From Mycolicibacterium crocinum (lineage in GTDB: Bacteria > Actinomycetota > Actinomycetes > Mycobacteriales > Mycobacteriaceae): a DNA stretch of 64,000 nt. The translations under genes and the position numbers were made by a program. Below the pieces are notes generated by a model, which had not been told where the DNA came from, made no database searches, and worked only from the letters and a program-made list of their open reading frames with translations. Below, piece by piece: positions 7,976 to 11,314 of this stretch; within the stretch, counting starts at the first letter, position 1, and every line of letters begins with the position of its first letter. The DNA lies in assembly GCF_022370635.2 (NCBI RefSeq), contig NZ_CP092362.2, positions 248,001 through 312,000 of the forward strand. The letters run 5' to 3'.

Positions 7976-8431
7976 ATGTCGCCCAAGTTCGCCACCGCCG
8001 ACAGCGTCGGCCTCGAGCAGCTGCTGGAGTTCGTCCGCCCCCGCCACCACATGGTGCTGACCACCTTCCGCGCTGACGGATCGTTGCAGAGTTCGCCGGT
8101 GACCGGCGGGGTCGACGAACAGGGTCGCCTGGTGATCGCCAGCTACCCGCAGCGAGCCAAGTCGGCGAATATCCGTCGCGCCGGACGCGCCAGTGTTGTG
8201 GTGCTCTCCGACGAGTTCAACGGCGCCTACGTCCAGATCGACGGGCCCGCCGAAGTGATCGAACTGCCCGACGCCGTCGAACCGCTGGTCGACTACTTTC
8301 GCGCGGTGGCCGGCGAGCACTCGGACTGGGACGAATACCGCGAGGCGATGGTCAAACAGGGCAAGTGCCTGATCCGGGTCACTCCGCAGCGCTGGGGTCC
8401 GGTGGCGACAGGCGGCTTTCCACCGTCCTGA
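7976..8431 (+). CDS. PPOX-class, probably F420-dependent, oxidoreductase
   Basis: A protein of 151 residues with the split-barrel FMN/F420-binding fold of the pyridoxamine-phosphate-oxidase-like class (TIGR03618/TIGR03666 type): an N-terminal 'HMVLTTFRADGSLQSSPV' strand pair and a central 'YPQRAKSANIRRAGRASVVV' segment that contacts the cofactor phosphate. Mycobacteria use coenzyme F420 in many such proteins. The ATG at 7976 starts at the usual distance from the first barrel strand; an upstream in-frame ATG would add an unconserved basic tail. Its last 53 bases overlap the convergent sucrase/ferredoxin-like gene. Confidence 0.8.
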   Translation: MSPKFATADSVGLEQLLEFVRPRHHMVLTTFRADGSLQSSPVTGGVDEQGRLVIASYPQRAKSANIRRAGRASVVVLSDEFNGAYVQIDGPAEVIELPDAVEPLVDYFRAVAGEHSDWDEYREAMVKQGKCLIRVTPQRWGPVATGGFPPS

Positions 8432-9299
8432 GCGACGCCAGCGTGTAAACCCGCACGCGCCCCGGCGTTTTCGCGTGGCACTGCGACAACAGCGGCTCGG
8501 AGAGCTCCTCGTTGAGCACCACCTCGACGGGAGGATCCGCGCCGAGCACCACCCGGACGGTGCCGTCACCCGGCTCGATGTCCAGCGGCGGAAAGGCGTC
8601 GATGCGGTCGTCACCGAATTCCGCACGGGCGAAGTGTTGCGCGGCCTGGACGGGGTGGGGCAATGACGTGCGACCGCGCAGGAACCGGTCGTCCAGCCGG
8701 CCGTGCAGGTAACGGCCCACCAACTTCGCGGCGTCGGTGCTGTCCACCCGCCCGTAGCACAATCCGGTGGGCAGCACGAGCATCGTGGCGGCGAAGCGGT
8801 CACCACCGAGATGGGAGCATTCCCAGGCGAATTCGGGATAGGCGGCGGCAATTGCGGCCGCGGCCGAGCGGCCCCGCACCGCGCAGCACATGTCATGGCG
8901 ACCGTGTGCGCAGACCGCGACGAGCGGATCCGTCGAGGCCGTGCCGTCCGAACCGTCGAGCGCCAACTCGAGGTATCCGCGCGGGTCGTCGACCTCCCCG
9001 CCGTACAACGCCTCACTACCGACCGCGCACTGGGCGACGAACCAGCGCCAGCGCGGGGCGGCCGGCCGGCGGCCGTGTTTGCGGATCGCCGCAATGCGCA
9101 TGCCCGCCGCCTCGGCGCGCCGGACGACGGCTAATCCCAGCTTCGGGTCGATGCAGGCCGGCGACTGCAGAAACGCCGAAGGACCCCAGCCGCCGGACAA
9201 TTCGAGTAGTAGCCACGACGTACCGGCCGACGCGGTTCCGTACATCGGGTCGTTCCGGGCCAGCGACTGGTCGCTGCAGCCCTGCCCGGCTCTGCTCAT
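8379..9299 (-). CDS. sucrase/ferredoxin-like (thioredoxin-fold) protein
   Basis: A protein of 306 residues resembling the sucraseferredoxin-like family (PF06999). It has the cysteine-rich CAHGRHDMCCA segment (Cys130, Cys138, Cys139) and the CSHLGGDRFA segment (Cys161, His163); the family commonly has a His where Asp167 is found here. Such proteins are thought to be thioredoxin-like iron-sulfur electron carriers, but their biology is poorly known. Its ATG overlaps the stop of the JmjC gene as ATGA, so it is translationally coupled to it and is the third gene after the repeat peptide. It could supply electrons to, or act on the product of, the oxygenase; that is inference. Confidence 0.75.
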   Translation of the reverse strand: MSRAGQGCSDQSLARNDPMYGTASAGTSWLLLELSGGWGPSAFLQSPACIDPKLGLAVVRRAEAAGMRIAAIRKHGRRPAAPRWRWFVAQCAVGSEALYGGEVDDPRGYLELALDGSDGTASTDPLVAVCAHGRHDMCCAVRGRSAAAAIAAAYPEFAWECSHLGGDRFAATMLVLPTGLCYGRVDSTDAAKLVGRYLHGRLDDRFLRGRTSLPHPVQAAQHFARAEFGDDRIDAFPPLDIEPGDGTVRVVLGADPPVEVVLNEELSEPLLSQCHAKTPGRVRVYTLASLRTVESRLSPPDPSAAE

Positions 9300-10504
9300 C
9301 GGGCAGGCGCGGGGACGACCACCGCTTCCTTGAGCAGCCGCCGGATCAGCACTGCGCCGTCGGCCGGGTCGAGCCCCGGCAGGCCGGCGGAGCGCAGCAC
9401 GTCACCGCGGTGCAGCGCGTGCAGGGCCTCGGCGCACGAGGTGGGGAAGGTCATGGTTCGGTCGGGCAGCCGGAGCACCACCCGGTTCCCGGTCTGCTCG
9501 ATGGTGCTCACCAGCCCGTGTCGCCAGCAGACCTCGATATCGGCTTCGGCAGCGGCGGTCAGGCTGGCCAACGGACGGACCGCAACCGGCCGAGTCTGCA
9601 TGGCATGGCGGTTCGACAACCGGGCGGCTGCACCGGAACTCAGTGTCGCAGCGTTGTCGCGCAATGCCGCAACCACTTCGGCCATCACCTTGGTGACCGT
9701 GGCGACGGACTCGTCCCGATCGGTCGACGCGATGCCCATCGGCAGGGGTTGGCGGAAGGCTTCGATGGTCGACAACTCGTCGAGCACGGCGCGCGCGACG
9801 TCCAGGCCGGTTGTCGTCGAGACGCCGATGGTCAGGTGGATCGATGTCGTATCGAGACCCTGGGCGGCATGCAGCCAGCCCCGCGGCAGATACAGCGCGT
9901 CACCGGGGGCCAGCACGGTGTCGATGACCGGCGCGTCGCGCACCCGTTCGGCGATCGCGCTCCGGTACTCGGTCCACGGTTGCGACGGCAGGGGATGGTG
10001 GTGCACCGGTTCGTGCACCACCCAGCGCTTCTGCCCAGACACCTGCAGCACGAAGACATCGTGCACGTCGTAGTGCGCATCGAAACCACGGCCGCCCGGC
10101 GGCGTGATGTAGGCGTTGGCTTGCACCGGATGGCCGAGTTCGTCGACAGCCTCCCGCACGAAGTCGATCAGCGGCGGCCACAACCGATGCAGTCCCTGCA
10201 GGACAACGGTTGCGCCAGAGGCCAATTCGCCCAGGACCTTCGCCGAGTCGACCTGATCGGCGATCTCGGCGCCGAACCCCGCCGGTCCGAGATAGCAGTC
10301 CTTGGCCAGGATCTCGCCGTCTCGGGCGAGCCTGATGAAGGGTGCCCGGACACCGCGCTCGGCAATCAACTCGTCGACAGCCCCGGGAGACAGCAGATCG
10401 CTGAAATCCCGGGGCAGGTCGACGGATGTGCTGAGCAACGGCCGACGGCCCCAGTACTGATCGGCGAACGTCCGGGCGTCGACCGCACTGCAGCGGCTCA
10501 GCAT
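9296..10504 (-). CDS. JmjC-domain (cupin) iron/2-oxoglutarate oxygenase
   Basis: A protein of 402 residues resembling the bacterial ribosomal-oxygenase / JmjC group (YcfD, NO66, MINA53). The iron triad is intact: His144 and Asp146 in FDAHYDVHDVF and the distal His212 in LPRGWLHAAQ. A C-terminal ~150 residues of winged-helix type follow. Family enzymes hydroxylate residues, often Arg or His, in proteins. The start chosen is the ATG 8 bases downstream of the repeat-peptide stop; the frame is open far upstream but only over the peptide gene in another frame. No clear ribosome-binding site is seen, so coupling to the peptide gene is likely. The peptide is the obvious candidate substrate. Confidence 0.85.
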   Translation of the reverse strand: MLSRCSAVDARTFADQYWGRRPLLSTSVDLPRDFSDLLSPGAVDELIAERGVRAPFIRLARDGEILAKDCYLGPAGFGAEIADQVDSAKVLGELASGATVVLQGLHRLWPPLIDFVREAVDELGHPVQANAYITPPGGRGFDAHYDVHDVFVLQVSGQKRWVVHEPVHHHPLPSQPWTEYRSAIAERVRDAPVIDTVLAPGDALYLPRGWLHAAQGLDTTSIHLTIGVSTTTGLDVARAVLDELSTIEAFRQPLPMGIASTDRDESVATVTKVMAEVVAALRDNAATLSSGAAARLSNRHAMQTRPVAVRPLASLTAAAEADIEVCWRHGLVSTIEQTGNRVVLRLPDRTMTFPTSCAEALHALHRGDVLRSAGLPGLDPADGAVLIRRLLKEAVVVPAPAR

Positions 10505-10511
10505 GGGAAGG

Positions 10512-10694
10512 TCAGGCGGTTCCGTCGGCGCCGCCGTCGTGGCCTTCGGGGTTCGAACCACCGTCGGCCGGCCCTTCGCCGCTACCACCCGCGGTTCCGT
10601 CGGCCCCGCCGTCGTGGCCCTCCGGGTTGGAACCGCCGTCAGCGGTGCCTTCGCCACCCGGGGTGGAGGTCGTGATGTCGTCGTCGAGCGCCAT
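10512..10694 (-). CDS. 60-residue Gly/Asp-rich repeat peptide, candidate RiPP precursor
   Basis: The chosen ATG is preceded at 7 bases by GAAAGGA. The 60-residue product has no Lys or Arg. It begins MALDDDITTSTPGG and then contains two 25-residue units, each with the identical 18-residue block ADGGSNPEGHDGGADGTA (residues 18-35 and 43-60). The two blocks differ at seven codons, all synonymous. It is followed 8 bases later by the JmjC oxygenase and then the sucrase/ferredoxin-like gene, with a C39-like peptidase divergent. A short acidic leader plus repeated core is typical of multi-core modified peptides. I know no named family for it; a structural or metal-binding peptide is the alternative. 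Confidence 0.75.
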   Translation of the reverse strand: MALDDDITTSTPGGEGTADGGSNPEGHDGGADGTAGGSGEGPADGGSNPEGHDGGADGTA

Positions 10695-10741
10695 GACAGA
10701 TCCTTTCTCAAAAGCGCAAAAGCGCGGCACAGTGTGCAGGG

Positions 10742-11314
10742 ATGGGTGCGATGGGAGTTACCGCACCGGCAGAGAACGAAACTCCGTCGAGGGAGATGGA
10801 TGTGTCCGGGTGGCCGCGCCAGCGCGACGGCGTGAGCTGTGGGCCGAGTGTCGCGGTGATGGCGGGTGCGCTGCTCGACGCCGATTACGGCACCCCACTG
10901 CGATCCGAGCACCCGCAACAGTGGTTCGACGCCGAGCAGGCCCGGGTACATCGGGCGGTGAACATGGTGTGGCCGCGCGCCTTGGGGACCACCCCGCCCG
11001 CGGTCGCACGGGCCATAACCGCGCATAGCGCCGCCCGCGGTGTTCGCTACCGGTGGCGGCCCGCCCGGTGTGGGGACCGACTGGCCGACGTCTGCGATGC
11101 GGTGGCCGCGGGTTGGCCGGTGGCGATGCTGATCGGTGCGACATTGCCGCGGCACTGGGTACTGATTGTCGAGATCGAGGGCGCCGCGCTGCGGTGTTAT
11201 GAACCGTCGTCGGCCGCGCTCCTGGATATTGCGATCGACGACGTTCGGGACGGCCGGTTGGCGCGCCTCGGATTTCCGCGCGCGTTCGCGTTCGTCACGC
11301 CGCACTGTGTTTGA
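10742..11314 (+). CDS. C39-like papain-fold cysteine peptidase
   Basis: A protein of 190 residues or less. It shows the papain-type layout: Gln then Cys six residues apart (QRDGVSC, followed by GPS), a downstream His in LPRHWVLIV, and a following YEPSS that places an acidic residue after the His as in C39 bacteriocin-leader peptidases. There is no membrane or ABC domain, so it is a stand-alone enzyme. ATGs at 10742, 10751 and 10796 are all possible starts; 10751 has the best spacing from AGGGAT, and 10796 still keeps the active site. It is divergent, with 47 bases between starts, from the repeat-peptide operon. Leader removal from the peptide is the obvious hypothesis. Confidence 0.7.
   Translation: MGAMGVTAPAENETPSREMDVSGWPRQRDGVSCGPSVAVMAGALLDADYGTPLRSEHPQQWFDAEQARVHRAVNMVWPRALGTTPPAVARAITAHSAARGVRYRWRPARCGDRLADVCDAVAAGWPVAMLIGATLPRHWVLIVEIEGAALRCYEPSSAALLDIAIDDVRDGRLARLGFPRAFAFVTPHCV

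What the first reader, a model, noticed from the sequence alone, without database searches (positions are those of the whole stretch)
8379..11314. Candidate unrecognised RiPP-type cluster: repeat peptide, JmjC oxygenase, sucrase/ferredoxin-like protein, divergent C39-like peptidase
Seen: a 60-residue peptide lacking Lys and Arg with a duplicated 18-residue block, a JmjC oxygenase with intact HxD...H triad 8 bases downstream, a sucrase/ferredoxin-like protein coupled to it by ATGA, and a stand-alone C39-like peptidase reading from the opposite strand 47 bases away. Established: JmjC enzymes hydroxylate peptide side chains and C39 peptidases cut leaders. Inference: the peptide is a two-core precursor, hydroxylated (Asp, Asn and His in the block are natural targets), reduced or handled by the redox partner and trimmed by the peptidase. 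I do not know a described family with this gene set.
Basis: partly seen in the sequence, partly recalled or inferred. Interest (0 to 1): 0.9.

Follow-up and report, generated by a model that had tools for sequence, protein, structure and literature searches.

The report
Repeat-peptide hydroxylation cassette of actinobacteria
In this mycobacterial genome, and in relatives across the actinobacterial phylum, a gene for a small aspartate-rich repeat peptide sits directly before a gene for a JmjC-family oxygenase and usually a third gene for a ferredoxin-like protein; the oxygenase likely grips the head of the peptide and would hydroxylate its repeats, which would make this an undescribed kind of ribosomally made, modified peptide.

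Summary
The 60-residue peptide (10512-10694, -), JmjC protein (9296-10504, -) and Suc_Fer protein (8379-9299, -) form a conserved cassette. All 110 loci examined carry the repeat peptide just upstream of JmjC (108 as an intact frame; repeat number varies) and 107 carry Suc_Fer just downstream. In a wider draw from the phylum 34 of 37 informative loci have an Asp-rich peptide before JmjC; 29 share a short head motif while the core changes. The JmjC protein is built like the ribosomal oxygenases NO66/MINA, and its C-terminal domain resembles RiPP leader-binding (RRE) domains. The Suc_Fer partner has Asp at a predicted cluster ligand (135 of 137) where unlinked relatives have His (26 of 26). Best reading: a RiPP-like system in which a JmjC-RRE enzyme hydroxylates Asp (or His) in the repeats, helped by an altered ferredoxin. 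Activity is untested. The C39-like peptidase is a neighbour, not a part (beside the cassette in 5 of 61 genus genomes that hold it), and no exporter or peptidase was found conserved.

The parts
10512..10694 (-). Repeat peptide gene (60 aa), first gene of the cassette; RBS GAGAAAGGATC before ATG
   Evidence: homologous peptide ORF upstream of JmjC in 108 of 110 loci intact, interrupted in the other 2
10665..10694 (-). Head (leader-like) segment MALDDDITTS; shared motif across the phylum
10590..10643 (-). Repeat block 1, ADGGSNPEGHDGGADGTA
10515..10568 (-). Repeat block 2, ADGGSNPEGHDGGADGTA (7 synonymous, 0 non-synonymous codon differences from block 1)
9296..10504 (-). JmjC oxygenase, ribosomal-oxygenase (NO66/MINA/YcfD) architecture, predicted repeat hydroxylase
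10067..10075 (-). JmjC iron-binding H143-Y-D145 (P0002 numbering); third ligand H211 at 9869-9871
   Evidence: invariant in A1 and A2
9299..9586 (-). C-terminal RRE-like winged-helix domain of the JmjC protein, predicted head-binding domain
8379..9299 (-). Suc_Fer-like protein (Apd1-type thioredoxin-like [2Fe-2S] ferredoxin family), predicted redox partner
8799..8885 (-). Suc_Fer ligand region C139...H163-x-G-G-D167; Asp where unlinked relatives have His
   Evidence: D in 135 of 137 JmjC-linked, H in 26 of 26 unlinked; C130 lies at 8910-8912
10758..10782 (-). SigF-type promoter box GTTT-N16-GGTAA upstream of the peptide gene (predicted)
   Evidence: 33 of 46 mycobacterial upstream regions, shuffled mean 0.10

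Best explanation
This is a peptide-modification cassette in which a JmjC oxygenase is predicted to bind the constant head of an Asp-rich repeat peptide through its C-terminal RRE-like domain and likely hydroxylates side chains, most likely the beta-carbon of Asp, in every repeat. Shown by sequence: the conserved peptide-JmjC pair, the usual third gene, the head motif, the variable repeats, the intact HxD...H site, and the Asp-for-His change in the ferredoxin. Predicted from structure models: the ribosomal-oxygenase fold and the RRE-like domain. Inferred: the enzyme holds the head and works along the repeats with Fe(II) and 2-oxoglutarate; the Suc_Fer protein, a [2Fe-2S] protein with an altered ligand set, keeps the oxygenase iron reduced or carries out a second redox step; the product is a hydroxy-Asp-rich, probably metal-binding peptide. 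No exporter or peptidase was found conserved, so the product may stay in the cell or be cut by unlinked enzymes. In mycobacteria the genes are probably read from a SigF (general stress) promoter.
Confidence: 0.72

Rival explanations
1. The JmjC enzyme does modify the peptide, but on the His of HDGG (as NO66 and MINA do on ribosomal proteins), giving beta-hydroxyhistidine rather than hydroxy-Asp.
For: Closest solved structures are His hydroxylases. 107 of 108 first-set peptides hold at least one His, 51 of them exactly three.
Against: 20 of 26 peptides of the other classes hold no His, and 21 of 26 none after residue 20, while enzyme and head motif are kept.
Confidence: 0.17
2. The peptide is the substrate but not the precursor of a secreted natural product: an uncut, cytosolic, hydroxylated metal- or water-binding repeat protein of the stress response.
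For: No exporter or peptidase was found conserved in 68 loci; SigF-type box upstream in 33 of 46 mycobacterial regions; 106 of 108 first-set peptides have no Cys and 101 no Phe, Trp or Tyr.
Against: Constant head, variable core and an RRE-like domain are what RiPP precursors show; unlinked proteases could cut. This rival overlaps with the best explanation and differs only in the fate of the product.
Confidence: 0.35
3. One reading: a two-core RiPP trimmed by the divergent C39-like peptidase.
For: In this window and four further genus genomes the C39-like gene is the divergent neighbour; Q27, C33 and H138 are invariant in an alignment of 20 relatives. Genomes with both genes are somewhat more frequent than expected (28 against 20.4; Fisher p 0.0085), without correction for kinship.
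Against: 56 of 61 genus genomes with the gene do not have it beside the cassette, and 24 of 52 cassette genomes lack it at E < 1e-20; in the first 110 loci it was seen beside the cassette in 6, all of this genus. It may have moved in next to a shared promoter region.
Confidence: 0.06
4. The peptide is not modified at all: it is a regulator or chaperone of the JmjC protein, whose true target is a ribosomal or other protein, as some database names suggest.
For: Some database entries (mostly from JGI) call the enzyme 'ribosomal protein L16 Arg81 hydroxylase' or NO66; NCBI names are mostly 'cupin domain-containing protein'.
Against: Names are by homology only. Repeat number varies between relatives and the core changes sequence while the enzyme stays, which suits a substrate better than a regulator; the paralogous JmjC clade tested has no such peptide.
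Confidence: 0.1

Closest known systems
Ribosomal oxygenases NO66 (RIOX1), MINA53 (RIOX2) and YcfD (JmjC_2, PF08007)
   Different: Encoded beside a repeat peptide in all 110 loci examined; identity to NO66 chains about 18-24%.
JmjC tailoring enzymes of biphenomycin-type RiPPs (BipG, PbsQ)
   Same: JmjC or cupin-like hydroxylases acting on a ribosomal precursor (PMC12707348, PMC12257519; passages read).
   Different: There an Orn hydroxylase beside MNIO, radical SAM and Arg-to-Orn genes; here JmjC is the only conserved oxygenase and the peptides hold Asp repeats with little Lys or Arg (0.2% and 0.4% of residues).
RRE domains (PqqD, TbiB1, PbtF) and the RRE-like JmjC fusions noted in PMC12710340
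   Same: C-terminal domain has strands followed by two helices in winged-helix order, and RRE chains head the non-ROX matches. That paper (section 6 read) notes PF08007 fusions with RRE-like folds in fish and algae and bacterial homologues at about 30% identity in 'RiPP-like genomic contexts'.
   Different: The parts read describe no precursor, repeat core or Suc_Fer partner for them.
Apd1/Aim32 thioredoxin-like [2Fe-2S] ferredoxins (Suc_Fer-like, PF06999)
   Same: C-X8-C ... H-X-G-G pattern (motif C-X8-C-X24-75-H-X-G-G-H given in PMC11138216, passages read).
   Different: The last His is Asp in 135 of 137 JmjC-linked proteins (Glu 1, Cys 1) and His in 26 of 26 unlinked ones; a new His stands at position 135 in 134 of 137 against Arg in 23 of 26. 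C139 to H163 is X23, one below the published range.
C39 leader peptidases
   Same: Invariant Q, C and H in a papain-like order (the order is recalled); some relatives named 'Peptidase C39-like'.
   Different: Stand-alone, no Pfam hit, not linked to the cassette in most genomes.

Membership tests
RiPP biosynthetic system | Short precursor gene next to a modifying enzyme, conserved across genera | tested here: met
   108 of 110 loci intact; 34 of 37 informative phylum-wide loci
RiPP biosynthetic system | Constant head (leader) with variable core | tested here: met
   Head regex in 69 of 112 peptides (108 first-set plus L219-L222; 38 of the 43 misses are Streptomycetaceae by title) and in 29 of 34 of the phylum set; cores differ. 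One clade, 12 of 61 rows, lacks the head motif
RiPP biosynthetic system | Post-translational modification of the precursor | not testable with these tools
   needs mass spectrometry
RiPP biosynthetic system | Removal of the leader by a linked peptidase, and export | tested here: not met
   No other ORF family of 90 aa or more conserved in 68 loci; C39-like gene linked in 5 of 61 genomes. Unlinked enzymes are not excluded
RRE domain | Three strands then three helices, winged-helix fold like PqqD | tested here: inconclusive
RRE domain | Binds the leader | not testable with these tools
   Indirect only: head motif and loop length change together once
JmjC_2 / ribosomal oxygenase fold | PF08007 over cut-off, HxD...H, JmjC plus winged helix | tested here: met
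Ribosomal oxygenase (by function) | Hydroxylates a ribosomal protein | not tested
   no assay
Apd1-type bis-histidinyl ferredoxin | C-X8-C and H-X-G-G-H ligands | tested here: not met
   C-X8-C is kept, but H-X-G-G-D in 135 of 137 linked proteins; PF06999 itself is met
Peptidase C39 of bacteriocin exporters | Pfam C39 match | tested here: not met
   no Pfam match for the window's protein; UniRef names some relatives C39-like

The most novel reading that the evidence does not exclude
A phylum-wide class of RiPPs whose class-defining enzyme is a JmjC-RRE protein often filed as a ribosomal oxygenase: it reads a [LIV]-x-D-x-[DE]-[IM]-x-T head and turns repeat cores into poly-(beta-hydroxy-Asp) metal-binding peptides, powered by a ferredoxin with an Asp-ligated [2Fe-2S] cluster; the winged helix of human NO66 and MINA would then be kin of a RiPP leader-binding domain.
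Probability: 0.33. Interest if true: 0.92.

Novelty: new variant of a known kind. Interest (0 to 1): 0.82.

Why it matters
It gives a concrete candidate substrate to a large set of bacterial JmjC proteins that are named only by homology (some after ribosomal targets), offers a genetically encoded, repeat-tunable peptide for Asp (or His) hydroxylation, ties the winged helix of ribosomal oxygenases to RiPP leader recognition, and points to a ferredoxin subfamily with an exchanged cluster ligand, all open to direct test in E. coli.

Tried and rejected
Rejected: C39-like peptidase as a conserved part. Rejected: chance repeat (a repeated 6-mer appears in 322 of 20,000 shuffles of the peptide; the 18-mer is exact and its codons differ only synonymously). 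No support for plasmid-borne spread (no DNA match of the cassette in 72,556 plasmid records at this sensitivity). Led nowhere: Pfam and NCBIfam for the peptide, Pfam for the C-terminal domain, PDB by sequence for the C39-like protein. Literature: (open-licence PMC papers only; listings) gave no paper on a JmjC plus Suc_Fer plus repeat-peptide set that I could recognise; decRiPPter (PMC7794033) and RRE-Finder (PMC7470986) were searched for terms in the main text only: no cupin, jumonji, sucrase or oxygenase in the first, no JmjC, cupin, oxygenase or hydroxyl in the second.

Weak spots of the counts. The 110 loci are capped, best-scoring lists (30 of the 52 close genus genomes; 80 of 85 GTDB stretches), and at least seven pairs show the same peptide in both lists and look like one genome twice (such as L002/L097, L011/L032, L023/L035). 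The peptide criterion (two or more [AGS]DGG near the JmjC start) was chosen. Unlinked Suc_Fer proteins come from the best-scoring 30 plus two; 'unlinked' means no JmjC within about 1.5 kb, and one (L199) lies at a contig start. An earlier regex count gave odd letters from wrong matches in a few rows and was replaced by an alignment count, for which 9 loci were dropped (8 the same places as loci kept, and L223). Control loci: 6 of 25 genomes with only the distant JmjC form were not fetched, three of the fetched regions are cut by contig ends (L120, L126, L127), and L117 holds a Gly/Ala-rich frame with three loose DG matches. The head-motif regexes differ in detail; L222 and L236 were counted as misses although the motif can be read by eye (ISDDDITN; LTDEDITV upstream of the start chosen). 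In some searches the labels 'head' or 'no head' were set by hand (L224 is a partial motif, L226 an unrelated ORF). The codon comparison within equal-length peptides mixed unaligned relatives and is not used; one search replaces it. The first box regex for the promoter (19 of 46, window not among them) was widened to fit the window. The tree includes the C-terminal domain; one search leaves it out.
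Full report
OBSERVATION. All named features are in the window. The peptide gene (10512-10694, minus strand) has a good ribosome-binding site and encodes 60 residues without Lys or Arg; its 18-residue block is exactly duplicated and the two DNA copies differ at 7 codons, all synonymous. Among five close orthologues, 160 synonymous and 36 non-synonymous codon differences were counted in 606 compared codons, while random single changes in the same codons would give 702 to 2034: the peptide is under purifying selection as a protein. 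JmjC starts 7 bases downstream; the Suc_Fer-like protein follows with an ATGA overlap. The C39-like ORF on the other strand probably starts at 10796.

A CONSERVED CASSETTE. A search of 148 genomes of the genus found the JmjC protein in 77 at E <= 1e-10, 52 of them (counted by hand from the table) as the close form (the best 30 places became loci); a scan of GTDB contigs gave 80 more loci in Mycobacterium, Mycolicibacterium, Gordonia, Agreia, Agromyces, Cryobacterium, Blastococcus, Streptomyces, Actinacidiphila, Raineyella and others. The two sets overlap: at least seven pairs look like the same genome twice. In these 110 loci a repeat peptide lies just upstream of JmjC in 108 as an intact frame and in the other two as an interrupted one (L007 frame change, L026 frame change and N), and Suc_Fer lies just downstream in 107; the three without it (L068, L087, L099) stop at a contig end. 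The number of HDGGADG-type units is 0, 1, 2, 3, 4, 5 or 7 in 1, 6, 27, 48, 16, 9 and 1 of 108 peptides. In 68 loci longer than 12 kb, among ORFs of 90 aa or more, only JmjC and Suc_Fer (and antisense frames over them) are present in all; the next ORF family is in 29 of 68 and includes the peptide frame itself. So no conserved exporter, peptidase or regulator was found; smaller genes were not tested.

CONTROL. 20 regions around the roughly 30%-identical JmjC paralogues of the same genus (19 of 25 such genomes) show neither Suc_Fer nor a cassette peptide (one, L117, holds a Gly/Ala-rich frame with three loose DG matches). In a tree of 88 JmjC rows the peptide-less rows, except the very long row L247, lie on one side of a branch (support 100/99).

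ACROSS THE PHYLUM. With a profile of 19 sequences, 42 of 296 genomes of the phylum have a JmjC match and 74 of 296 a Suc_Fer match. I fetched 40 JmjC places, leaving out G000 and G010, already in hand, and the divergent G383. Three end at a contig edge before the peptide could be seen (L237, L243, L256). Of the other 37, 34 have an Asp-rich, mostly repetitive peptide before JmjC and 28 of these also Suc_Fer next door (L226 and L247 pass the script's Asp threshold but are not counted, as they show no repeats; L257 has none). Relatives of one distant form are named Egicoccus and Nitriliruptor. The distant peptides start with LTDEDIETVW-like heads, akin to MALDDDDITTS in mycobacteria and MTINDDDITLE in Agromyces, while their cores read TDGDATDGTDGDA, TDADADS, or in L241 SADGTDQGVxGGTYGPRDA and in L254 PTEDDENLDAPGEHSQDTGDE. 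A head regex fits 29 of the 34 and 21 of 697 ATG ORFs in the same loci, a count that contains peptides themselves. Asp is the one residue common to all cores: in the first set the residue after Asp is Gly in 1129 cases, next Ser in 22, and in the 26 peptides of other classes Asp makes up 13-42% of the part after residue 20, while 20 of the 26 hold no His. In the first set 107 of 108 hold a His.

THE FERREDOXIN. Apd1-type proteins bind a [2Fe-2S] cluster by C-X8-C-X24-75-H-X-G-G-H (PMC11138216, passages read). The window protein has C130-X8-C139-X23-H163-x-G-G-D167. Across 163 aligned proteins, position 167 is Asp in 135 of 137 JmjC-linked ones (Glu 1, Cys 1) and His in 26 of 26 unlinked ones; position 135 is His in 134 of 137 linked and Arg in 23 of 26 unlinked (9 loci were left out before the count; the unlinked ones are from the best-scoring matches). 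That the cluster is formed, and with which ligands, is inference.

THE C39-LIKE NEIGHBOUR. 61 of 148 genus genomes hold this protein; in 5 (G000, G008, G023, G052, G135) it is beside the cassette. Of the 20 best places, those 5 have the repeat peptide within about 1.5 kb and 15 do not. Using lists of 52 cassette and 58 C39 genomes typed, both occur in 28 (expected 20.4; p 0.0085 without correction for kinship). It is a neighbour in one small group.

REGULATION. In 33 of 46 distinct mycobacterial upstream regions a box GTTT-N(13-18)-GGYAA occurs, with a spacer of 16 in 31 of 33, against 0.10 on average in shuffles (a stricter first pattern gave 19 of 46 and missed the window); in the window it is at 10782-10758. 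A table of the M. smegmatis SigF regulon lists boxes such as GTTT-N16-GGCTA (PMC4694148, passages read), so SigF control is likely but not shown. Streptomyces upstream regions look different.

MECHANISM AND JUDGEMENT. The best reading is a RiPP-like system with a JmjC-RRE enzyme as main modifier, Asp as likely target and a ligand-altered ferredoxin as redox partner. Whether the product is trimmed and exported or stays in the cell is open, and the absence of a linked peptidase and exporter favours the latter or unlinked processing. Databases name the enzyme by homology, NCBI mostly as a cupin protein and JGI often after ribosomal targets. Seven full-text searches found no description of this set that I could recognise (open-licence papers only).

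Noticed in passing
L241 (JmjC and upstream ORF): Same head (LGDDDISSS) and JmjC, but a different repeat core, SADGTDQGVxGGTYGPRDA in several copies, and no Suc_Fer next door: the core can change completely.
   Followed up: partly
L254 (JmjC and upstream ORF): Head ITDNDITSG with a duplicated 21-residue core PTEDDENLDAPGEHSQDTGDE, no Suc_Fer next door.
   Followed up: partly
L226: Strong JmjC match with the short loop, but upstream only an acidic non-repeated ORF and no Suc_Fer next door; a Suc_Fer lies elsewhere in that genome (G277).
   Followed up: partly
window 8379-8431: The 3' end of the Suc_Fer gene overlaps the convergent F420-dependent PPOX oxidoreductase gene (7976-8431, +) by 53 bases.
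   Followed up: no
L118 and L119: The roughly 30%-identical JmjC paralogues occur as two copies close together in two genus genomes (G029, G082); their substrate is unknown and no repeat peptide is near.
   Followed up: no
window 10742-11314: The C39-like family is widespread in the genus, mostly away from the cassette and of unknown role (61 of 148 genomes); 1358 database proteins at E <= 0.001.
   Followed up: partly
L227 and L243 (both genome G179): One genome holds two JmjC genes of this clade, one with peptide and Suc_Fer, one (L243) without Suc_Fer next door and with its upstream side cut by the contig end.
   Followed up: no
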